Shown here: positions 3,158 through 14,220 of the stretch, piece after piece
How positions within the stretch are numbered: position 1 is the first letter of the stretch
Layout of the letters: every line of letters starts with the position of its first letter
Assembly (NCBI GenBank): GCA_030524475.1
Contig: JAUNGO010000025.1
Location: 1 to 32,283 of the forward strand
From: Eggerthellaceae bacterium
GTDB lineage: Bacteria > Actinomycetota > Coriobacteriia > Coriobacteriales > Eggerthellaceae
Reading direction: 5' to 3'
Length of the DNA stretch: 32,283 bases
Translations under genes and position numbers: made by a program
The notes under the pieces: generated by a model
Seen by the model: only the letters and a program-made list of their open reading frames with translations
Told to the model about the DNA's origin: nothing
The model's database searches: none

Positions 3158-4756
3158 ATGCCCGAGCGCGTGATGGTCTCCGACGCCGAGCCGAAGGCGC
3201 CTTCTCCCGAGGGGGCGGCGTCCAAAGGGGGCGCGGCGTCGGCGAGCCCGGGCGCAACCGGTCCCATCGCGCGCGTCGAGGAAAAGAAGAAGTTCCGCTG
3301 GTCGAGCTTTACCTACACCACGCGCGTCACGCTGGCGTTCGCCTTCATTGCGGCCATGACGGCGCTCGTCGCCATCGGCGTGGTGTCGTTCGTGTGGGAG
3401 CAGCACTTCCAAACCTACACCACCGACAACATGCGCACGATGGCAACCACCACGGCCGAGCGCATCGCCTCCATCTACGAGCGCACGGGCGACCTGTGGG
3501 ACGCCGAAACCACCAAGCCCGCGCAGCAGGCGGCGGAAATGACGTCGGGCGTGGGCGTGAAGGTGATCGACGCGCAGGGCGACGTGCCCTTCGACTCGTC
3601 GGTTGCCGTGCGCAACAACGCCACGTCTTCGCAGCCGTCGTTCGAGCCGAGCGATCCTTCGCAGGTGGCAATGGCGCCCATCGTGGTGGACAACGTGGCG
3701 GTCGGCTCAGTGCGCATCTGGGTGTACGGCTCGGACACGCTCATGCGCCAGCCCGACCAGGAATTCCGCAACAACTCATACCAGGCGCTGCTGCTTGCCA
3801 CCATCGTCGCCATCGTTTTGGCGTCGTGCATCGGCTTTCTGTTCGCGCGCAACCTGGTGGCGCCCATCAACCGCGTGACCAAAACGGCGCGCGCCATCAA
3901 GGAAGGCGACCTGTCGGCGCGCACCGACCTGCGCGGCGAGGACGAGATTGCCCAGCTCGGCGAGACATTCGACGCCATGGCCGAGTCGGTGGAGAAAGAC
4001 CGCGAGCTTGAACGCCGCCTCACCACCGACGTGGCGCACGAGCTGCGCACGCCGCTGATGGCCATCCAGGCAACGGTCGAGGCGATGGTCGACGGCGTGT
4101 ACGAGGCCGACGAGGAACGCCTGGTCACCGTGAACTCCGAGGTCCAGCGCTTGAGCCGTCTGGTCGACGCGTTGCTGAAGCTTTCGCGTTTGGAGAACCG
4201 CTCGCAGCCCATGAAAGAAGAAGTGGTGGACGTGGGCGAGCTCATCGAGGGCATCGTGTCGACGCACGAGATGTTCGTGGCCGATTCCGGCCTCACCATC
4301 GACTACCATGCGCAAAAAGACGTGCGCGTGGTGGGCGATCCCGACATGATTCGCCAGGCCACCGCCAACCTGATCTCGAACGCGGTGCGCTACACGCCCG
4401 AGGGCGGGCACATCGACGTACGCGTGCGCAAGGGCGACATCATGGCGTCGATTTCCGTGCAGGACACCGGCATCGGCCTCACGCGCGAAGAGGCGAAGAT
4501 GGTGTTCTCGCGCTTCTGGCGCGCCGACGCGGGCCGCAACCGCGAAAGCGGCGGCTTGGGCGTGGGCTTGGCCGTGGTGAAGGAGATCGTCGACCGCCAC
4601 GGCGGCTGGGTGCAGGTGGAAGGCGAGAAGGGCAAGGGAGCGTGCTTCACCATCCACATCCCGCTCTACGACGAGGAACGCTCGAAGAAGCAGGCGAAGG
4701 CCGCGCAGGCTCAGGCGAACCGCAATCGCCAGAAGAAAACGCGCGGCGGCAAGTAG
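3158..4756 (+). CDS. Membrane sensor histidine kinase
   Basis: The 532-residue kinase has TM helices at about 55-80 and 209-231. They enclose an extracytoplasmic sensor region of about 125 residues, followed by HAMP (231-283) and the dimerisation domain with H294 in DVAHELRTPL. The ATPase domain has the N box (N404, N408), DTGIG (436-440) and GGLGVGLAVV. The N-terminal 45 residues are low-complexity and cytoplasmic. ATG at 3173 is an alternative start. The tail (about 508-532) is very basic. Its last nine codons and the first two bases of the stop are repeated exactly at 7528-7555, beyond the mod operon, so the 3' end marks the left boundary of an apparent insertion. The likely original terminator now lies at 7577-7610. 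Confidence 0.95.
   Translation: MPERVMVSDAEPKAPSPEGAASKGGAASASPGATGPIARVEEKKKFRWSSFTYTTRVTLAFAFIAAMTALVAIGVVSFVWEQHFQTYTTDNMRTMATTTAERIASIYERTGDLWDAETTKPAQQAAEMTSGVGVKVIDAQGDVPFDSSVAVRNNATSSQPSFEPSDPSQVAMAPIVVDNVAVGSVRIWVYGSDTLMRQPDQEFRNNSYQALLLATIVAIVLASCIGFLFARNLVAPINRVTKTARAIKEGDLSARTDLRGEDEIAQLGETFDAMAESVEKDRELERRLTTDVAHELRTPLMAIQATVEAMVDGVYEADEERLVTVNSEVQRLSRLVDALLKLSRLENRSQPMKEEVVDVGELIEGIVSTHEMFVADSGLTIDYHAQKDVRVVGDPDMIRQATANLISNAVRYTPEGGHIDVRVRKGDIMASISVQDTGIGLTREEAKMVFSRFWRADAGRNRESGGLGVGLAVVKEIVDRHGGWVQVEGEKGKGACFTIHIPLYDEERSKKQAKAAQAQANRNRQKKTRGGK
4728..4755. repeat. 28-bp direct repeat, left copy (3' end of the kinase gene)
   Basis: It is identical to 7528-7555, begins GCCAGAAGAAAAC and ends GGCGGCAAGTA. 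With the seven bases before it, 32 of 35 positions agree. Here it encodes the C-terminus of the kinase; the right copy is not in a gene. The copies are exactly 2800 bp apart. Confidence 0.95.
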
Positions 4757-4805
4757 CACACCGCCCCGCGTTCGCCTCCGCATTCGCCCTGCGCCCCGCG
4801 TTCAC

Positions 4806-5519
4806 CTACGGTTTTATGCCAAGAAAGCGGCGGATGTCAGGATCGGTTTGCGTGAACAGGTCGTCGGGGGTGCATACGACTCGCATTCGTCCATTGAGTA
4901 TGATGCCGATTCGGTCAGCCAACGTGCGTGCCTCGTTGAAATCATGCGTAACGAATACGATTGTGCAGTCGTATTGAGCGTGTACCTCCCGCATAAGGTC
5001 ATACATACGCAGCTTGGTCGATGGGTCGAGCGCTGAAAACGGCTCGTCAAGTAGCAAGATACTGGGTTCAAGGACGAGCGCGCGGGCAAGGGCGGTGCGT
5101 TGTGATTCGCCTCCGCTAATGATGCCAGGGTGTCGATCGGCAAGGTGAGAAATGCCAAACCGTTCCATAATGTCTGCGACACGTGAATGTGCTGCGTCGG
5201 CAGATAGGCCGTTGTGCCGCAAGCCATATGCAATGTTTTCGGCTACGGTTAAATGCGGGAACAGGGCGTAGTCCTGATAAAGTATTCCTAGGTGGCGTTG
5301 TTGAATGGGGAGGCTGCTCACGTCTTTTCCGTCCAGCAGAATACGCCCTTCGTTGAGGGGAAACGCGCCAGCGATTGACTCCATGAGTACGGTTTTGCCC
5401 GATCCGGTTGTCCCAAGTATAGAGAAAATCTCACGCGGTCTAATACTGAGTTCGTTGAGCGCGAGTGTAAAACTCCCCCGCCGTACGCGTACATTCTCTA
5501 TTGTTATGCTACCTGCCAT
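4806..5519 (-). CDS. modC: Molybdate/tungstate ABC transporter ATPase, ModC-like
   Basis: This 237-residue ABC ATPase has Walker A GTTGSGKT (36-43), Q-loop Q82, signature SGGES (135-139), Walker B ILLLDE (154-159) and switch histidine H192. Canonical ModC is about 350 residues with a C-terminal MOP/TOBE molybdate-binding domain. That domain is absent here, so the protein resembles the short ATPases of some Wtp/Tup/Mod systems. The frame runs upstream to 5597, but ATG at 5519 is preferred: homology starts there and it overlaps the permease stop by 11 bases, as in coupled operons. It is the last gene of the operon and converges on the kinase gene across a 49-base gap without an obvious terminator. 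Molybdate rather than tungstate is inferred from the ModA-like binding protein. Confidence 0.85.
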   Translation of the reverse strand: MAGSITIENVRVRRGSFTLALNELSIRPREIFSILGTTGSGKTVLMESIAGAFPLNEGRILLDGKDVSSLPIQQRHLGILYQDYALFPHLTVAENIAYGLRHNGLSADAAHSRVADIMERFGISHLADRHPGIISGGESQRTALARALVLEPSILLLDEPFSALDPSTKLRMYDLMREVHAQYDCTIVFVTHDFNEARTLADRIGIILNGRMRVVCTPDDLFTQTDPDIRRFLGIKP

Positions 5520-6423
5520 GTCGTCGCTCTCCTTCTTTCGGAACCGATGCTCTTCGCAGTCGGTCGAAGGGTGTGCGAGCTTTGTGCGACTCGACACGAG
5601 TTGACCCTATGGGTTTGTTGAGCGCATTGGCTACAACAAGCGTTGCGGCAGAGAGAAGAAGCATGATCATAGCTGTTGCCATGGCGGTTTCCGTATTGCC
5701 CGTTGATATGCTGAGATAAATACTTCCCGGTAGTGTTTCGGTGCGCATGCGCGTAACGCCGACCAACATGAGCGTTGCGCCGAACTCGCCCATGCCGCGC
5801 GCCCACGTGAGAACAAACGTCGAGATCAGCGAGTTGCGGCAAATGGGGAGAATGATAGTGCGAAAAACCTCCCCTGACGTAGCGCCAAGCGTTTTTGCGA
5901 CAAATTCCATGCGTGGATTGACCTCGGCAAACGCTGTACGCACCATGCGAATAGCAAAGGGAAGATTGACGATGAGCTGAGCCATGACGATGCCCGTCGG
6001 CTCGAACACCACGCCGAAACCGACCTCTTTAAGAGCTTTTCCGACGGGAGAAGAGAAGATGAGCAACAAAGCGAAGCCGAGCAAGATGTAGGGAAGGGAA
6101 AGCGTAAGTTCCATCAGGACTTCTGCAGCACGCTTAAAGGGCATGTTGGTCCTGGTGAGCGCGTAAGCGGTAGGTAACGCGAGCGCAAGGCAGATGATCG
6201 TTGAGATGGTGGACGTGACGACGCTCATGCGTAGCGAGAACAGCACTTCCGCCGACGTGACGGCTTCGCTTAGGTGCGTGGCGCCGCCGAGGACAATGGC
6301 AACAACGGCACTCCCTACGAATAGCAAAACACACGTTGCCACTACGATGGAAACACCGGGGAAGACGTCGCGACGTCTTCCCCGGTGTTTCCTTTTTGCA
6401 AGCGGGCTTGTTGCCTCGCTCAT
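5509..6423 (-). CDS. modB: Molybdate/tungstate ABC transporter permease, ModB-like
   Basis: The 304-residue permease has an Arg/Lys-rich N-terminus (about 9-19) and roughly six hydrophobic segments between 23 and 285. The cytoplasmic coupling loop EFVAKTLGATSGEVFRTIIL (about 173-192) matches the EAA motif of binding-protein-dependent permeases. MGEFGATLMLVG is typical of the ModB/CysT group. It should form the membrane channel with the ATPase encoded downstream. It starts three bases after the modA stop and overlaps modC, so the three are co-transcribed. The assignment as molybdate permease rests on family resemblance and on the neighbours; tungstate or sulfate cannot be excluded from this protein alone. 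Confidence 0.88.
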   Translation of the reverse strand: MSEATSPLAKRKHRGRRRDVFPGVSIVVATCVLLFVGSAVVAIVLGGATHLSEAVTSAEVLFSLRMSVVTSTISTIICLALALPTAYALTRTNMPFKRAAEVLMELTLSLPYILLGFALLLIFSSPVGKALKEVGFGVVFEPTGIVMAQLIVNLPFAIRMVRTAFAEVNPRMEFVAKTLGATSGEVFRTIILPICRNSLISTFVLTWARGMGEFGATLMLVGVTRMRTETLPGSIYLSISTGNTETAMATAMIMLLLSAATLVVANALNKPIGSTRVESHKARTPFDRLRRASVPKEGERRHGR

Positions 6424-6426
6424 AAG

Positions 6427-7278
6427 CTATACCTGCTCGTAGCCGTATTTTGCCCAGATTTCCTTGGCGGTGTCGGTCTGGAGAAAATCGCTGAAGGCTT
6501 GGGCGGCGTCGGCATTGGACGAGCAGGTGAGTCGAGCCGCGGGGACGGTCTTCACGAAGGGGTCAAGATCGGTGGTATCGACGATAGTCGCTCCATCAGA
6601 CTTGACGTTCTCTTTCCACACAATGCCAGCGTCGCCCTCTCCATTGGCAAGAGCGGTAGCAATTTGAGGTGCAGTTGTGGTAGTGGTAAGCGCACCACGC
6701 GCATCAAGTGCATCCCACAGTCCCGCTTCCGTGAGAGCTTTTTTCGCGATCTTGCCGATGGGCGTTGCTTCGGGATCGCCAACGAGAACCATGCGAGCGT
6801 TCTCGAGGTCGGCTAGACTGGAGATGTTTGCGGGATTGTCTGCGGGAACAGCCAAAACGGGAATGTGCTTGACGAGATCGGTGCTGGTGTCGACATAAGA
6901 CTCAACGGGTTTGAGCTCGTCAGCCGATCCTGCAATGAAGAAGTCACCCTCCTCGGTTGTCTGGATTTGCGTTTGGATTTGAGCTGCGTTAGCGAAGGTG
7001 ACGTTCATGGCGCAGCCGGTTTCGTCGGCGAAGGCGTCGGAGATTTCTTGGAAGGGGTCAGTCATGCCGGCGCCGCAGTATATATCAAGCGACGCGCCTT
7101 CGAGCGATTTTGTAGCAGGGGCGTTGGACTGCGCGCTCGAATTTGGGCTTGAATTGGATTCACTGCTCCCTGCGCAGCCGGCAAGGCTCATTGCTGCCAC
7201 TAGACTTAAGATGGCTGCTGTGCATACCATTCTGATGCAGTGATTTCTCGTGGTTTTGCTTGTGATTCTGCGGCGCAT
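6427..7278 (-). CDS. modA: Molybdate-binding lipoprotein, ModA-like
   Basis: The 283-residue substrate-binding protein has a basic start, a hydrophobic signal (about 17-32) and lipobox SLAGC with the lipidated cysteine at 35. A Ser/Asn-rich linker follows. The mature domain begins about residue 58 with LDIYCGAGMTDPFQEI, where ModA proteins have a similar AASLTD-type strand. FADETG and DFFIAGSADELKP also match the family. It captures the oxyanion outside the cell and delivers it to the ModB channel. It is the first gene of the operon, behind a roughly 160-base leader with a structured element and a promoter at 7446-7474. Codon use is less GC-biased than in neighbouring genes, supporting recent acquisition. 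Tungstate is a possible alternative substrate. Confidence 0.88.
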   Translation of the reverse strand: MRRRITSKTTRNHCIRMVCTAAILSLVAAMSLAGCAGSSESNSSPNSSAQSNAPATKSLEGASLDIYCGAGMTDPFQEISDAFADETGCAMNVTFANAAQIQTQIQTTEEGDFFIAGSADELKPVESYVDTSTDLVKHIPVLAVPADNPANISSLADLENARMVLVGDPEATPIGKIAKKALTEAGLWDALDARGALTTTTTAPQIATALANGEGDAGIVWKENVKSDGATIVDTTDLDPFVKTVPAARLTCSSNADAAQAFSDFLQTDTAKEIWAKYGYEQV

Positions 7279-7337
7279 GGAAGTCTCCGTTTCGTGAACC
7301 TTGCTTTTATATAGATCCGTTCACTCACTCCGGATGC

Positions 7338-7410
7338 GTGGGTGCAAGCTGGGCTGCTGGTGGCGAGTCAACGTTTGTTGTTTGCTCGCCCAGGAAGCAA
7401 AACACCCCCA
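7338..7410 (-). promoter_or_regulatory. Structured leader upstream of modA, possible Moco/tungsten-cofactor riboswitch
   Basis: Read on the minus strand, the leader can fold into nested stems. GGGTG (7407-7403) pairs with CACCC (7344-7340). GGCGAG (7390-7385) pairs with CTCGCC (7367-7362). CTGGG (7393-7389) and CCCAG (7353-7349) offer a competing pairing. It lies between the promoter and the modA start, where a cofactor-sensing RNA would sit. The segment GCTTCCTGGG resembles what I recall of the Moco RNA motif, but I cannot confirm a match. Confidence 0.35.
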
Positions 7411-7445
7411 TAGCCTTATCCATAGTAAGCCAACGGAATATTAAT

Positions 7446-7474
7446 ACTATATAAAGAATAGTCTTAAATAGCAA
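7446..7474 (-). promoter_or_regulatory. Sigma-70-type promoter for modABC
   Basis: On the minus strand, TTGCTA (7474-7469) and TATAGT (7451-7446) are separated by exactly 17 bases in an A+T-rich stretch. The start site would be near 7438, giving a leader of about 160 bases. A second TATAAT lies at 7494-7489 with a poorer -35. ACTAT/ATAGT around the -10 forms a short inverted repeat that could be an operator. Confidence 0.6.
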
Positions 7475-7527
7475 TATTTAAAAATGAGATTATATCTTTA
7501 CCAGGCAATATCAAGTTAATCGTAACT

Positions 7528-7555
7528 GCCAGAAGAAAACGCGCGGCGGCAAGTA
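7528..7555. repeat. 28-bp direct repeat, right copy (orphan kinase 3' end)
   Basis: It is identical to 4728-4755. Here it follows A+T-rich DNA and encodes nothing. It is followed by TAA in the kinase frame and then the hairpin at 7577-7610, as if this were the original downstream side of the kinase gene. Confidence 0.95.
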
Positions 7556-7576
7556 AACGCGCGGTGTGCAGGCGCT

Positions 7577-7610
7577 GAAGGCGGCCAGGTGCGTTCACCC
7601 CGCCGCCTTC
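7577..7610 (+). terminator. Hairpin terminator, probably originally of the kinase operon
   Basis: GAAGGCGGC (7577-7585) pairs with GCCGCCTTC (7602-7610), with an inner stem GGTG/CACC around CGTT, followed by CGTCTTCCCCTT. It lies 22 bases after the orphan kinase-end repeat. No plus-strand gene ends nearby, so it makes most sense as the terminator of the interrupted kinase operon. Confidence 0.6.
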
Positions 7611-7720
7611 CGTCTTCCCCTTATATTCCCGTGAAAAATTCCACTCTGTTCTCGCGGGGGTTTCCGTATTGCGCCATAATGAAACAATACGCGTTTTTTC
7701 GAGAAGGGGAGGTTTTTCGC

Positions 7721-8599
7721 ATGGCGGGAATCGACATCAAGCCTGATGCGCAGGGCAAGGTTCGCGATCTGTACGACTTGGGCGACAAGTTGCTGTTGGT
7801 GGCCACCGACCGCATTTCGGCGTTCGACTACATTTTGGAGGACGAAATTCCCTACAAGGGCCAGGTGCTCACGCAGCTGTCGTGCTTTTGGCTGGAGCTG
7901 CTTGAGGGTGTGATCGAGAACCACCTGATCAGCGCCGACGTGGCCGACCTGCCCGAGCAGTTCAAGCCCTACGCCGACTACCTGCGTGGGCGTTTCATGC
8001 TGGTGCGCAAGGCCGATATGTTCCCCGTCGAGTGCATCGTGCGCGGGTATCTGGCGGGCAGCGGCCTGAAGGAATACCAACGCCAAGGCACCGTGTGCGG
8101 TATCGAATTGCCGGCTGGCCTGGTGAACTCGTCCAAGCTGCCCGAGCCCATCTTCACGCCGTCCACCAAAGCCGAGATCGGCGACCACGACGAGAACATC
8201 AGCTTCGATCGCTGCGCCGAGATCATCGGCGAGCAAGACGCCGCCGCCCTGTGCGATTTGGCCATCAAGGTGTACTCCACGGCGCGCGACCATGCGGCCG
8301 AGCGCGGCGTGATCATCGCCGACACGAAGTTCGAGTTCGGGCGCATCGACGGCAAGATCATCCTGGCCGACGAGGTGCTCACCCCCGACTCCTCGCGTTT
8401 CTGGCCGGGTGATCAGTACGCCGAGGGCAAAGACCAGCCCAGCTTCGACAAGCAGTTCGTGCGCGACTGGCTCACCGCGAACTGGGACAAGAACTCGGGC
8501 ACCAAGCCGCCGCGCCTTCCCCAGGAGATCATCGAGAAGACTTCGGAGAAGTACATTCAGGCGTATGAGACCATAACCGGGAACAAATTCGAGCGATAG
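7721..8599 (+). CDS. purC: Phosphoribosylaminoimidazole-succinocarboxamide synthase
   Basis: PurC (SAICAR synthetase) joins aspartate to CAIR using ATP in purine synthesis. The 292-residue protein has GKVRDLYD (12-19), TDRISAFD (29-36), the ECIVRGYLAGSG segment and DTKFEFGR, all typical of the family; the length fits the longer PurC type. ATG at 7721 is chosen because AAGGGGAGG lies about eight bases upstream and homology starts there; the frame is open further upstream in the leader. A CATAAT box at about 7673 may be its -10. The next gene begins 21 bases after the stop and purL follows, giving a probable purine operon with a membrane protein between the two enzymes. Confidence 0.95.
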   Translation: MAGIDIKPDAQGKVRDLYDLGDKLLLVATDRISAFDYILEDEIPYKGQVLTQLSCFWLELLEGVIENHLISADVADLPEQFKPYADYLRGRFMLVRKADMFPVECIVRGYLAGSGLKEYQRQGTVCGIELPAGLVNSSKLPEPIFTPSTKAEIGDHDENISFDRCAEIIGEQDAAALCDLAIKVYSTARDHAAERGVIIADTKFEFGRIDGKIILADEVLTPDSSRFWPGDQYAEGKDQPSFDKQFVRDWLTANWDKNSGTKPPRLPQEIIEKTSEKYIQAYETITGNKFER

Positions 8600-9397: not shown

Positions 9398-12300
9398 ATG
9401 GTCAAGCGTGTCTATGTTGAGAAGAAGCCCGGCTTCGACGTTGAGGCGCAGCAGCTGCTCGCCGAGCTGCGCGACATCCTGGGCATCGAGTCGCTCGAAG
9501 GCGTGCGGTTGGTGAACCGATACGACGTCGAGGGCATTACCGACACGCTGTTCGATCAGTGCGTGCCCACCGTGTTCAGCGAACCGCAGTCCGACGTGGC
9601 CGCGTTTGAGCAGCCTGACGCGCAGGGGGCTGTGGTGTTCGCCGTTGAGCCGCTGCCCGGGCAGTTCGATCAGCGCGCCGACAGCGCCAGCGAGTGCATT
9701 CAGTTGATCTCGCAAGGCGAGCGTCCGCAGGTGCTTTCCGCAAAGGTGTACTACTTGAAAGGCGCGCTGTCCGAAGCCGACGTCGCGGCGGTGAAGCATT
9801 ACGTCATCAACCCCGTCGAGTGCCGCGAAGCGTCGCTTGCTCCGCGCGACACGCTGGCGGTTGCCTATCCCGAGCCCGCCGACGTCGAGGTGATTGAGGG
9901 CTTCCGCACGCTCGACGAGGCGGGGCTGCAAGCGTTCATCGAGCAGCGCGGGCTGGCGATGGACTTGGCGGACATCACGTTCTGCCAGCAATACTTCGCC
10001 AACGACGAGCGGCGCGACCCCACCATCACCGAGATCAAGATGATCGACACCTATTGGTCGGACCACTGCCGCCACACCACGTTCGGCACGGTGCTTGAGA
10101 ACGTGGAGATCGACGACGCGGCCGTGCGCCGCGCGTTCGAGCGCTACCTCGAGATGCGCCACGAGCTGGGACGCGACGAGAAGCCCATCTGCCTCATGGA
10201 CATGGGCACCATCGGCGCGAAGTGGCTGAAGAAGCGGGGCATCCTGACGGGGCTCGACGAGTCCGAGGAGATAAACGCCTGCACCGTGAAGGTGAAGGTC
10301 GACGTGAACGGCGAGGAACAGGACTGGCTGTACCTGTTCAAGAACGAGACGCACAACCACCCCACCGAGATCGAGCCGTTCGGCGGCGCGGCCACGTGCG
10401 TGGGCGGCGCCATCCGCGACCCGTTGAGCGGGCGCAGCTACGTGTACCAGGCCATGCGCGTGACGGGCGCGGCCGACCCCACGGTGCCCGTGAGCGAAAC
10501 CATCCCCGGCAAGCTGCCGCAGCGCAAGCTGGTCACCACGGCGGCTGCGGGCTATTCCAGCTATGGCAACCAGATCGGCCTGGCCACGGGGCAGGTGCAC
10601 GAGCTGTACCACCCGGGCTACGCCGCCAAGCGCATGGAGATCGGCGCGGTGGTGGGCGCCACGCCCGCCGACCACGTGCGACGCGAGACGCCGGCACCGG
10701 GAGATGTGGTGGTGCTTTTGGGCGGGCGCACGGGCCGCGACGGTATCGGCGGCGCCACGGGCTCGTCGAAGGCGCACAACGTGGAGTCGCTCGAGACGTG
10801 CGGCGCCGAGGTGCAGAAGGGCAACGCCCCCGTTGAGCGCAAGATTCAGCGCCTGTTCCGCCGCGGCGACGCGTGCCGCATGATCAAGCGCTGCAACGAC
10901 TTCGGCGCGGGCGGCGTGTCGGTGGCCATCGGGGAGTTGGCGGACGGCGTGTTCGTGGAGCTCGACCGCGTGCCGAAGAAGTACGAGGGCCTCGACGGCA
11001 CCGAGTTGGCCATCGCCGAGAGCCAGGAACGCATGGCGGTGGCGCTGGCGGCCGAGGACGTGGACGCGTTCATCGCGCTGGCACACGAGGAAAACCTGGA
11101 AGCCACGCCCGTGGCGCGCGTGACGGAAGAAGCGCGCGTGCGCATGGAGTGGCGCGGAACCACCATCGTGGACGTGTCGCGCGACTTTTTGAACAGCAAC
11201 GGCGCGCCGAAGTACCAGGACGTGCACGTGGCGGAGCAGGGTGCGGATGCGGATGCGGCTGCTGGTGCGGCAACGGGCGCGAACGCGATGCCGGGCGCGG
11301 ATGCTGCCACGGCGACGCAGGGCGGCATGCCGAGCGTGCCGGGCGCCGCGTGCGACACGCTGGCCGCAGGGCTGCGCACGCTGGTGACCGACCTCAACGT
11401 GTGCTCGAACAAGGGGCTTTCCGAGCGTTTCGACTCCACCATTGGCGCCGCCACGGTGCTCATGCCGTTTGGCGGCAAGCATCAGCTGACGCCTTCGCAG
11501 GCCATGGTGGCGAAGCTGCCCGTGTTCGGTGAAACCACCACGTGCAGCGGCCTGGCCTGGGGATTCAACCCGTACCTCACGGCTGCCGACCAGTTCACGG
11601 GCTCGTATCTGGCGGTGCTGGAGTCGGTGGCGAAGCTGACGGCGGCCGGCTTCAAGCGCAAGGATATGTACCTCACGTTCCAAGAATACTTTGAGCGCCT
11701 GCGCGGTTGCTCCGAGCGTTGGGGCAAGCCCGTGGCGGCGGTGCTCGGCGCGCTGATGGCGCAGGTCGACCTGCGCGTGGGCGCCATCGGCGGCAAGGAC
11801 TCCATGTCGGGGTCGTTTGAGGACCTGGACGTGCCGCCGACGCTCGTGTCGTTCGCCACGGCGTGTGGCAAGGTCGACCGCGTGACCTCGCCCGAGTTCA
11901 AGGGCGCGGGGCATCGCGTGCTCGCGTTGATCCCGAAGTACGGCGCGCAGGGCAAGGCGTCTGTCGAGGCGGCTTCGAACTGCGAGGGCACGGCTGGCAT
12001 CGGTGCCGCCGTGTGCAGCCCGGAGCACCAGGGTGCCGGCTACTTCGGCGGCGGCTTCACGGGGTCCGATCTTGTCCCCGAGCCCATGAGCGTGAACTTC
12101 GTGACGAAGGTGGTCGAGGAGCTTATTGGCGACAAGTCGGCGGAGGCGGTGTCTGCCGTGGGCTTCGGCGGCATGGCCGAGACGCTCTTCAAGATGTGCG
12201 TGGGCAACGGCATCGGCGTGAAGCTGGCTGACGACGTGGCGCGCGCCGATTTGTTCAGGCACGCCTACGGCGCGTTCGTCGTTGAGCTGGCGGAGGGCAA

Positions 12301-13330
12301 AAGCGCGAGCAAGCTGCGTTCGAGCGGCTACATGGACGTGGTGTGCCTGGGCGAAACCACCGAGGCGTACGAGTTCGCGGCGTGCGGCGAAGTGGTCGAC
12401 TTGGCTGAGCTGCAGGAAGCGTGGGAGCACGGTATCGAAGACGTGTTCCCCTATCGGGGTGCAGGTTCGGCGGTCGATCCCATCTCCTTTACTGCTGCGG
12501 CGCCGCATGTGTTTGCGGGTCCGGCGGTGGCGCGGCCTCGCGTGGTTATCCCGGTGTTCCCCGGCAACAACTGCGAGTACGACTCGGCGGCGGCGTTCGA
12601 GCGCGCGGGTGCCGTGGTCGACACGTTCATCGTGAACAACCTTACGCCTGATGCAGTGGCGAAAAGCACGCGCGAACTGGTGAAACTCATCAAGGGTGCG
12701 CAAATCGTCATGATCCCGGGCGGCTTCTCGGGCGGCGACGAGCCCGACGGCTCGGCGAAGTTCATCACGGCGTTCTTCCGTGCGCCTGAGGTTACCGAGG
12801 CCGTGCGCGACCTGTTGCAGAACCGCGACGGCTTGATGCTCGGCATCTGCAACGGTTTCCAGGCGCTCGTGAAGCTGGGCCTGGTGCCTTACGGCGACAT
12901 TCGCCCGATGGACGAGAAATGCGCCACGCTGACGTTTAACAACATCGGCCGCCACCAGAGCAAGTTGGTGCGCACGCGCGTGGCCAGCTCGCTTTCCCCG
13001 TGGCTGTCGAAGTGCCAGGTGGGAGACATCCACACCGTGCCCATCAGCCACGGCGAGGGCCGCTTCGTGGCGCCGCCCGAGCTGCTTGCGCAGTTGGCGG
13101 AAAACGGCCAGGTGGCCACGCAGTACGTTGACGAGGCGGGCGTGCCGTCGATGGACCTTTCCGTGAACCCGAACGGCTCGCTGCTCGCCATCGAGGGCAT
13201 CACGAGCCCCGACGGGCGCGTGCTCGGCAAGATGGGACACACCGAGCGCAGCGGCGTGGGACTCTACAAAAACGTCCCCGGCGACCTGTACCAACCCCTT
13301 TTCGAAGGCGGCGTGAGCTATTTCGCGTAA
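9398..13330 (+). CDS. purL: Phosphoribosylformylglycinamidine synthase, single chain with glutaminase domain
   Basis: This 1310-residue FGAM synthase converts FGAR to FGAM with glutamine and ATP. It contains the synthetase and the PurQ-like amidotransferase in one chain. Synthetase motifs include SDHCRHTTF and ETHNHPTEIEPFGG; a second ATP-domain half follows. The glutaminase domain starts about residue 1047 (RVVIPVFPGNNCEYD), with nucleophile C1151 in GICNG and H1218/E1220 in SHGEGRF. ATG at 9398 (MVKRVYVEKK) is chosen because homology begins there and GAGAAAGG precedes it. Residues about 612-650 are an Ala/Gly/Asp-rich insert that looks like a low-complexity linker between the two synthetase halves. 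The enzyme completes the local purine cluster with purC and the PurF-like gene at 29261-30688. Confidence 0.96.
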   Translation: MVKRVYVEKKPGFDVEAQQLLAELRDILGIESLEGVRLVNRYDVEGITDTLFDQCVPTVFSEPQSDVAAFEQPDAQGAVVFAVEPLPGQFDQRADSASECIQLISQGERPQVLSAKVYYLKGALSEADVAAVKHYVINPVECREASLAPRDTLAVAYPEPADVEVIEGFRTLDEAGLQAFIEQRGLAMDLADITFCQQYFANDERRDPTITEIKMIDTYWSDHCRHTTFGTVLENVEIDDAAVRRAFERYLEMRHELGRDEKPICLMDMGTIGAKWLKKRGILTGLDESEEINACTVKVKVDVNGEEQDWLYLFKNETHNHPTEIEPFGGAATCVGGAIRDPLSGRSYVYQAMRVTGAADPTVPVSETIPGKLPQRKLVTTAAAGYSSYGNQIGLATGQVHELYHPGYAAKRMEIGAVVGATPADHVRRETPAPGDVVVLLGGRTGRDGIGGATGSSKAHNVESLETCGAEVQKGNAPVERKIQRLFRRGDACRMIKRCNDFGAGGVSVAIGELADGVFVELDRVPKKYEGLDGTELAIAESQERMAVALAAEDVDAFIALAHEENLEATPVARVTEEARVRMEWRGTTIVDVSRDFLNSNGAPKYQDVHVAEQGADADAAAGAATGANAMPGADAATATQGGMPSVPGAACDTLAAGLRTLVTDLNVCSNKGLSERFDSTIGAATVLMPFGGKHQLTPSQAMVAKLPVFGETTTCSGLAWGFNPYLTAADQFTGSYLAVLESVAKLTAAGFKRKDMYLTFQEYFERLRGCSERWGKPVAAVLGALMAQVDLRVGAIGGKDSMSGSFEDLDVPPTLVSFATACGKVDRVTSPEFKGAGHRVLALIPKYGAQGKASVEAASNCEGTAGIGAAVCSPEHQGAGYFGGGFTGSDLVPEPMSVNFVTKVVEELIGDKSAEAVSAVGFGGMAETLFKMCVGNGIGVKLADDVARADLFRHAYGAFVVELAEGKSASKLRSSGYMDVVCLGETTEAYEFAACGEVVDLAELQEAWEHGIEDVFPYRGAGSAVDPISFTAAAPHVFAGPAVARPRVVIPVFPGNNCEYDSAAAFERAGAVVDTFIVNNLTPDAVAKSTRELVKLIKGAQIVMIPGGFSGGDEPDGSAKFITAFFRAPEVTEAVRDLLQNRDGLMLGICNGFQALVKLGLVPYGDIRPMDEKCATLTFNNIGRHQSKLVRTRVASSLSPWLSKCQVGDIHTVPISHGEGRFVAPPELLAQLAENGQVATQYVDEAGVPSMDLSVNPNGSLLAIEGITSPDGRVLGKMGHTERSGVGLYKNVPGDLYQPLFEGGVSYFA

Positions 13331-13344
13331 CCGCCCGACGCTGC

Positions 13345-13445
13345 GAAGCGCTCGGGCACCCCATCTTGCCCCTTGTTTTGCGCTCGGCGTTGGCCAAAGC
13401 CAACTTGGCGCAAAAGCGGGGCAACCTGGGGCGCCGGAGCGCTTC
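13345..13445. terminator. Very long imperfect hairpin after purL
   Basis: The arms are about 47-50 bases and meet at GTTGGC-CAAA-GCCAAC. Outer ends GAAGCGCTC and GAGCGCTTC are complementary, and TTGCCCC/GGGGCAA and TTTTGCGC/GCGCAAAA pair between, with few mismatches or bulges. It is far longer than a standard terminator. It could end purL transcription but may be a third type of palindromic repeat element. Confidence 0.65.
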
Positions 13446-13516
13446 TCGCTGATGTCGACTAAAAGCTCGACCTGCCTCCTTGTCACATTGACCACACCCG
13501 ATGAAAGGTGGTTCCC

Positions 13517-13750
13517 ATGGGCTTTCTGAAAGACACGGCGGAGGAGTTCAGGCGTGGCGTCAGCGGCGTGGACACGTACGAGGTGGCCGGCAAAACGGTG
13601 ACGTGCTCGCATTGCGGCGGGCAGGATTTTAGCCGCGACTCGCGCCAGCTCAACACAACGGCCCTCACGTTTTTCGACCTCGACTGGGCGAACCGCAACG
13701 CCACCATCTACATCTGCAAGAACTGCGGCCACATCGAGTGGTTCGTGTAG
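13517..13750 (+). CDS. Small zinc-ribbon protein
   Basis: The 77-residue protein has two CxxC pairs, C30/C33 (TCSHCGG) and C67/C70 (CKNCGH), which should bind one zinc ion in a ribbon fold. The remainder is a short helical N-terminus and beta-strand segments. Such proteins often bind nucleic acid or act as protein adaptors; the sequence does not say which. ATG at 13517 is chosen over GTG at 13508 because AAAGGTGG is better placed. It is separated from purL by the long hairpin and is convergent with the DUF3990 module. Confidence 0.8.
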   Translation: MGFLKDTAEEFRRGVSGVDTYEVAGKTVTCSHCGGQDFSRDSRQLNTTALTFFDLDWANRNATIYICKNCGHIEWFV

Positions 13751-13773
13751 CGATTTGCCTCAACTCGTTCCGT

Positions 13774-14220
13774 TTACTCGAGTAATTCGTCCGCTTCGTA
13801 GCATGCGGCAATGTAGCTGCGAGGTTGGTAGAAAAAATCGGTGTTGTAGTCGGAAATGGCGTCGCTCACCCACGACGAGTACACGTTTTGCAGCATGGCT
13901 ACGGGGTCGCCGTCGTCGGGCATGACGTCTTCCACGAGCCTGCTGTACACCCCGGCAATCGTCCAACGCTCCGGTGCTTCATACTTGCAATCTCCTACGT
14001 TGTCGAAGTTGCCGTCGGTGATGTTCGCCATCTCGCAGTACTCGTCGGCAACGTGGTCGATCGAATCGCTGTGCAGTACGTCGGCATATTGATATATGCG
14101 GTGCAGCAGATCGGTGCCCAGCTGGGCAACAACCTCGCCGCGCTTCACTTTCCTCGTGCGCCCGATGTGCTCGATGAGCCCGCAGGTGTAAAACAAGTCG
14201 TTGTCGTTCTTAATCTTCAC
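13774..14220 (-). CDS. Partner protein of DUF3990 module, candidate antitoxin
   Basis: The 148-residue acidic protein has no named domain I can assign with certainty. Its first half (LIEHIGRTRKVKRGEVVAQLG, then LHSDSIDHVADEYCE) loosely resembles DUF3791-type proteins that accompany DUF3990. The second half ends in SSWVSDAISDYNTDFFYQPR. I recall similar proteins beside DUF3990 genes in gut anaerobes, but cannot verify it. Its start overlaps the end of the DUF3990 gene by 11 bases, so translation is coupled with the toxin-like gene first. Base composition is less GC-rich than the purine genes, fitting an accessory module. The antitoxin role is inference from position. Confidence 0.7.
   Translation of the reverse strand: MKIKNDNDLFYTCGLIEHIGRTRKVKRGEVVAQLGTDLLHRIYQYADVLHSDSIDHVADEYCEMANITDGNFDNVGDCKYEAPERWTIAGVYSRLVEDVMPDDGDPVAMLQNVYSSWVSDAISDYNTDFFYQPRSYIAACYEADELLE

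What the first reader, a model, noticed from the sequence alone, without database searches (positions are those of the whole stretch)
4728..7555. modABC island flanked by a 28-bp duplication of the kinase gene's 3' end
Two identical 28-bp copies of the last codons of the sensor-kinase gene lie exactly 2800 bp apart, with only modABC and its leader between. The segment is clearly more A+T-rich than its surroundings. Beyond the right copy comes a strong hairpin that fits the kinase operon's original terminator. The simplest reading is insertion at the kinase 3' end with the gene end restored, as integrative elements do at att sites, but no integrase is present. This could be a minimal transport cassette moved in trans, or the remnant of a larger island.
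Basis: partly seen in the sequence, partly recalled or inferred. Interest (0 to 1): 0.75.

Follow-up and report, generated by a model that had tools for sequence, protein, structure and literature searches.

The report
Acquired molybdate transporter, duplicated gene end
A gut bacterium of the Eggerthellaceae has gained a three-gene molybdate transporter, inserted right behind a sensor-kinase gene whose tail end is now present twice; the inserted DNA carries no mobility enzyme, and at least one other insertion in the same genome shows the same pattern, so this looks like one of the poorly understood ways bacteria add genes without breaking old ones.

Summary
A 28-bp sequence, the 3' end of a sensor-kinase gene, occurs twice, 2800 bp apart, and nowhere else in the genome. 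Only modABC and its leader lie between. modABC is foreign: GC3 is 0.56-0.62, against 0.78-0.93 for clear neighbouring genes. In 82 of 83 other loci measured, the kinase is followed by purC within 736 bp. Both held same-genus genomes show this empty arrangement and lack modA. So modABC was inserted here.

The att-site reading is only partly supported. No integrase lies in the window; the genome's only detected tyrosine recombinase is XerD. The far copy continues upstream as a diverged kinase tail (QYQVNRNC versus QAQANRNR, mostly third-position changes). This suggests the incoming DNA carried its own lower-GC kinase tail and recombined inside the 28 bp. A HipB-like gene behind a peptidase gene shows the same design, checked against the same two relatives; a possible third case lies behind a vapC-like gene. 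[quoted passage not shown]

modABC's closest sampled relatives are about 70% identical, so the donor is unsampled. The mechanism is unproven: no same-species strain with the empty site was available.

The parts
3158..4756 (+). sensor histidine kinase gene, intact; its 3' end is the target
   Evidence: HAMP, HisKA, HATPase_c; full-length relatives across the family
4728..4755 (+). left 28-bp copy, last codons of the kinase gene
   Evidence: exact repeat; in frame with the kinase ORF
4757..4805 (.). G+C-rich spacer between kinase stop and modC stop
   Evidence: read directly; which side it came from is inferred only
4806..5519 (-). modC, molybdate-type ABC ATPase
   Evidence: ABC_tran; aligns to the end with ModC of relatives; below the curated cut-off of TIGR02142
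5509..6423 (-). modB, permease
   Evidence: BPD_transp_1; TIGR02141/TIGR01581 below cut-off; 65-86% identical to relatives
6427..7278 (-). modA, molybdate-binding lipoprotein
   Evidence: SBP_bac_11; TIGR01256 above cut-off
7279..7505 (-). A+T-rich leader and promoter region of modABC
   Evidence: GC 0.41; similar AT-rich stretch upstream of modA in most relatives; no Rfam family
7506..7527 (+). diverged extension of the far kinase tail (CAA TAT CAA GTT AAT CGT AAC T)
   Evidence: codon-level match to 4706-4727; 0 of 60,000 leader-like sequences as good over 21 nt
7528..7555 (+). right 28-bp copy, identical to the left one, in no ORF
7574..7616 (+). stable hairpin, possibly the former end of the kinase transcript
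   Evidence: -23.9 kcal/mol, z = -4.2; no T run
7721..8599 (+). purC (SAICAR synthetase), the ancestral right neighbour of the kinase gene
   Evidence: PF01259; next to the kinase in relatives

Best explanation
modABC with its promoter region was acquired horizontally and inserted directly behind the kinase gene. The incoming DNA, probably a small circle or an intermediate equivalent to one, already carried a somewhat diverged, A+T-richer copy of a kinase 3' end next to modABC. A single (Campbell-type) crossover inside the shared 28 bp put the whole segment in. Afterwards the left copy reads host kinase then insert, so the gene stays whole; the far copy reads the insert's own diverged tail, then the 28 bp, then the host's original downstream DNA. 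The product has the architecture called 'insertion with long target duplication'. Shown: insertion relative to related species, foreign composition, the duplication, the codon-level extension, no integrase in the insert and no tyrosine recombinase but XerD in the held assembly. Inferred: circularity, the single crossover, host recombination as the machinery, the donor, and that the repeats would still allow precise loss of modABC.
For: Empty kinase-purC arrangement in 82 of 83 other loci and in both same-genus genomes, which lack modA. GC3 0.56-0.62 against 0.90 for the kinase and 0.87 for purC. modABC patchy in the order, 25 of 397 genomes. Far copy extends as QYQVNRNC against QAQANRNR; 0 of 60,000 leader-like and 1 of 60,000 kinase-end-like random sequences match as well over 21 nt. 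All 10 mismatches in the 50 aligned bases fall in the first 22 (P about 6e-5 if evenly spread), 7 of them transitions, which fits a crossover within the identical part and not even decay of a plain duplicate. A parallel insertion in the same genome, a HipB-like gene with a 69-bp duplicated peptidase-gene end, is absent from both same-genus genomes.
Against: No donor with the diverged tail was found. No circle and no same-species empty site were seen. 28 bp is short for homologous recombination (general knowledge). The codon-level extension was examined after the repeat tool pointed to it. The assembly is incomplete (85%), so an integrase elsewhere could be missing.
Confidence: 0.5

Rival explanations
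1. Site-specific integration: the 28 bp is the att core of an integrative element that targets the kinase 3' end; its integrase acted in trans or was lost when a larger island shrank.
For: Same topology: target gene kept whole, direct repeat at both ends of foreign DNA; att cores at gene 3' ends are common (general knowledge).
Against: No recombinase in the insert; only XerD among tyrosine recombinases in the assembly; two serine recombinases elsewhere. No other kinase locus carries an element with a repeated tail. No match to the core in viral contigs or in 298 genomes of the order. In the other cases the target gene and repeat length differ (28, 69 and 98 bp).
Confidence: 0.2
2. Illegitimate insertion with target duplication: foreign DNA joined at two staggered points of the kinase end, copying the stretch between them; the far copy's upstream similarity is later decay or coincidence.
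For: Matches the long and variable target duplications described for restriction-modification genes (PMC3031569; PMC3874152). Repeat lengths vary between cases in this genome.
Against: The mismatches in the far copy are not spread evenly (P about 6e-5) and six of ten fall on third codon positions; coincidence is unlikely.
Confidence: 0.2
3. The repeat is older than the insertion (an internal repeat of the low-complexity kinase tail), or a junction is a metagenome assembly error.
For: Kinase tails of some relatives are internally repetitive. The assembly has 97 contigs and is 85% complete.
Against: Neither same-genus tail has such a repeat. The flanks of the two copies differ on both sides and keep codon-level similarity, which an assembly error would not create.
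Confidence: 0.1

Closest known systems
Insertion with long target duplication (Nobusato et al. 2000, Helicobacter pylori; described in PMC1643837, PMC4978471, PMC3874152)
   Same: Genes present in one genome and absent from a relative, flanked by a long direct repeat of the target, with no recognised mobile element
   Different: Cargo there is mostly restriction-modification genes and duplications are in the order of 100 bp; here a transport operon, 28 bp identical, and the far copy has a diverged extension
Integrative elements and islands at gene 3' ends (att sites)
   Same: Target gene kept whole, direct repeats at the ends, foreign composition
   Different: No integrase, no mobility genes, no element sharing the site in relatives
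Minimal mobile elements of Neisseria (recalled, not looked up successfully)
   Same: Conserved flanking genes with different cargo in different genomes: L043 has a flavoprotein-like gene and a LuxR-type gene in the same kinase-purC slot
   Different: Those are exchanged by recombination in both flanks and need no duplicated gene end
modABC molybdate transporters of Eggerthellales
   Same: Gene order modA-modB-modC, AT-rich leader, 65-86% identity for ModB in most relatives
   Different: Different genomic place and low GC3; long branch in the tree

Membership tests
Insertion with long target duplication | Insert absent at the orthologous site of related genomes | tested here: met
   relatives are other species, not strains of the same one
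Insertion with long target duplication | Target sequence directly repeated at both ends of the insert | tested here: met
   28 bp identical plus a diverged extension, so not a plain copy
Insertion with long target duplication | No transposase, integrase or insertion sequence responsible | tested here: met
   none in the insert
Insertion with long target duplication | Close strain with one target copy and no insert | not testable with these tools
   no same-species genome held; in both same-genus genomes the tail is too diverged to align
Integrative element at an att site | Recombinase encoded by the element or shown to act in trans | tested here: not met
   no recombinase in the insert; only XerD of the tyrosine type in the assembly; action in trans not testable
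Integrative element at an att site | Direct repeat with gene 3' end restored | tested here: met
Integrative element at an att site | Same att core used by related elements | tested here: not met
ModABC transporter | modA binding protein, modB permease and modC ATPase in one operon | tested here: met
   ModB and ModC below curated cut-offs of the Mod models, but full operons align in relatives
ModABC transporter | Transport of molybdate | not testable with these tools
   inferred from family only

The most novel reading that the evidence does not exclude
A general, integrase-free route adds small gene cassettes behind gene 3' ends in this lineage: DNA carrying a diverged copy of the target gene's tail recombines into it, keeping the gene whole and leaving directly repeated ends by which the cassette could be lost again. 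modABC, the HipB-like gene and perhaps the cassette behind the vapC-like gene would be products of the same route.
Probability: 0.2. Interest if true: 0.7.

Novelty: new member of a known kind. Interest (0 to 1): 0.42.

Why it matters
It shows a complete nutrient-uptake operon joining a core chromosomal locus of a gut bacterium with no recognised mobile element, while the neighbouring gene stays intact. The diverged tail gives a testable clue to how such insertions arise, which the accounts I read leave open for restriction-modification genes. The repeats also predict that molybdate uptake could be lost precisely in part of the population. As evidence it is one solid case, one checked parallel and one possible parallel in one assembly.

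Tried and rejected
AT-rich leader as attP arms: rejected, most relatives have a similar stretch upstream of modA. Leader as a known riboswitch: nothing near a gathering score in Rfam. Transposon with terminal inverted repeats: only a 9-bp inverted pair, one arm between the repeats and one outside them, and no transposase. modABC as a generally flanked cassette: 24 other modABC loci have no flanking direct repeats above 14 bp; the one longer hit, in L127, was masked N. Phage or plasmid origin: no close homologue. L235 repeat, first taken as a further case: it is a diversity-generating retroelement, 12 of 16 template-variable differences at template adenines. Insertion hotspot with repeats: L043 carries another insert at the site without a duplicated tail. 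Literature searches for mobility of modABC in Eggerthella gave nothing direct; Furuta et al. 2010 is not held.

Full report
Observation. The window is contig C97 of a 2.32-Mb, 97-contig assembly, 85% complete. Its nearest named relatives at this locus are Adlercreutzia sp. ZJ473 and ZJ176, whose sequences here match those of the two same-genus genomes G022 and G062. The 28-mer lies at 4728-4755 and 7528-7555 and nowhere else in the assembly at up to 3 mismatches. Its 26-bp core is absent from 298 other genomes of the order and its 25-bp core from viral contigs. It is therefore not a dispersed repeat. Exact repeats of at least 28 bp within 12 kb are not rare in this genome (35 pairs in 1.19 Mb), so length alone is not the argument; the arrangement is.

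Insertion. I measured kinase-to-purC gaps in 84 loci including the window. The median is 105 bp. Apart from the window (2964 bp) and L043 (3668 bp) the largest is 736 bp. Some loci are the same species drawn from two collections, so 84 is not a count of independent lineages. Both same-genus genomes have the short gap and no modA match at E <= 1e-15. L043 carries a different insert at the same place, a flavoprotein-like gene and a LuxR-type gene by reading, without a repeated kinase tail.

Foreign composition. GC3 is 0.56 (modC), 0.62 (modB) and 0.61 (modA), against 0.90 for the kinase and 0.87 for purC. Clear neighbouring genes lie between 0.78 and 0.93; three ORFs with lower values in that table are probably not real genes. 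The leader has GC 0.41. In the order, 25 of 397 genomes have modA at E <= 1e-70. A tree of concatenated ModB, ModA and ModC puts the window on a long branch, with weak support (84/93), beside a set from families f1 and f6. The closest ModA is about 71% identical over its length. As far as the evidence goes, the donor is an unsampled, lower-GC member of the order.

The far copy is longer than 28 bp. Upstream of it, in the same register and frame, CAA TAT CAA GTT AAT CGT AAC TGC faces CAG GCT CAG GCG AAC CGC AAT CGC of the kinase gene (QYQVNRNC against QAQANRNR). None of 60,000 Markov sequences with the leader's composition reached both the identity and the BLOSUM score over 21 nt; with kinase-end composition 1 in 60,000 did. 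In the window no other position on either strand matched as well. All 10 mismatches in the 50 nt from 7506 to 7555 fall in the first 22 (P about 6e-5 if spread evenly). Six of the ten are at third codon positions (P about 0.03, calculated by hand). Even decay of a plain duplication does not give this. A diverged incoming tail that crossed over within the identical part does. No donor tail of this kind was found among the loci held.

Parallel cases. I scanned 1.41 Mb of the genome, about 61%, for direct repeats with one copy at a gene's 3' end and the other in no matching ORF. (a) L225: the last codons, stop and 5 nt of an M24 peptidase gene are repeated (69 bp, 99%) on the far side of a HipB-like gene with palindromes of the type TTATCCCGATCGGGATAAT. 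In G022 and G062 the peptidase gene is followed by the elongation factor P gene after about 140 bp, against about 820 bp here. The insert with its duplication explains 422 bp of this; the rest is unexplained. The far copy follows a few codons that could be the start of a lost hipA (inference). (b) L224: the end of a VapC-like gene is repeated (98 bp, 95%) around two small genes, one a ribbon-helix-helix protein. None of these genes occurs in the stretch held upstream of the neighbouring gene in G022 and G062, so the VapC-like gene is itself accessory and the order of events is unknown; I count this case as possible only. (c) L235 is a diversity-generating retroelement and not a case. I did not run a full control with gene 5' ends; by eye, one or two 5'-end repeats are in the same list.

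Recombinases. The one PF00589 protein in the genome is XerD (TIGR02225, 347.6 bits against a cut-off of 329.6). Two serine recombinases lie on contigs C43 and C71. None is near modABC.

Mechanism and status. Insertion of a foreign modABC at this site is close to certain (about 0.93 in my judgement). How it happened is not settled: single crossover with an incoming diverged tail 0.5, site-specific integration 0.2, illegitimate insertion with target duplication 0.2, older repeat or assembly artefact 0.1. The first two are the same topologically; only the enzyme and the donor would separate them. Molybdate uptake is inferred from family membership, not tested; ModB and ModC score below the curated cut-offs of the Mod models.

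Known frame. Insertion with long target duplication was described from two Helicobacter pylori genomes and linked to restriction-modification genes (PMC1643837; PMC4978471). PMC3874152 gives target duplications in the order of 100 bp; PMC3031569 calls them long and variable. I read these secondary accounts, not the original paper of 2000. The present case resembles that class in anatomy and differs in cargo and in the diverged part of the far copy.

Noticed in passing
L225 (G000:C65) 1021-1511: HipB-like gene inserted behind an M24 peptidase gene, with 69 bp of the peptidase gene's 3' end (99%) repeated on the far side; both same-genus genomes have the empty site.
   Followed up: yes
L224 (G000:C64) 9664-10888: End of a VapC-like gene repeated (98 bp, 95%) around two small genes, one a ribbon-helix-helix protein; possibly the same type of insertion.
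   Followed up: partly
L235 (G000:C75) 10777-13969: Diversity-generating retroelement in a phage-like region: variable repeat 11682-11809 at the end of a 348-aa gene, template 12469-12596, reverse transcriptase with YMDD; 12 of 16 differences at template adenines.
   Followed up: partly
L043 2072-5739: A different insert, a flavoprotein-like gene and a LuxR-type regulator gene, in the same kinase-purC slot of an uncultured Adlercreutzia, without duplicated kinase tail.
   Followed up: partly
window 7400-7500; upstream of modA in L127-L143: AT-rich leaders upstream of modA in most relatives hold recurring TATT/AATA-type and GGATAAT-type motifs that could be operators of an unidentified molybdate regulator.
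   Followed up: partly
window 6349-6392: Perfect 22-bp inverted repeat with no loop (GGAAACACCGGGGAAGACGTCG) inside the 5' part of modB; function unknown.
   Followed up: no
L179, L193, L204: Recurring short element TGACAAGGGGACAGGTCGTTTGTCAC, partly palindromic, in several places of the genome.
   Followed up: no
L127-L143: In six family genomes a ModD-like gene (by reading) lies next to modABC; the window's island lacks it.
   Followed up: no
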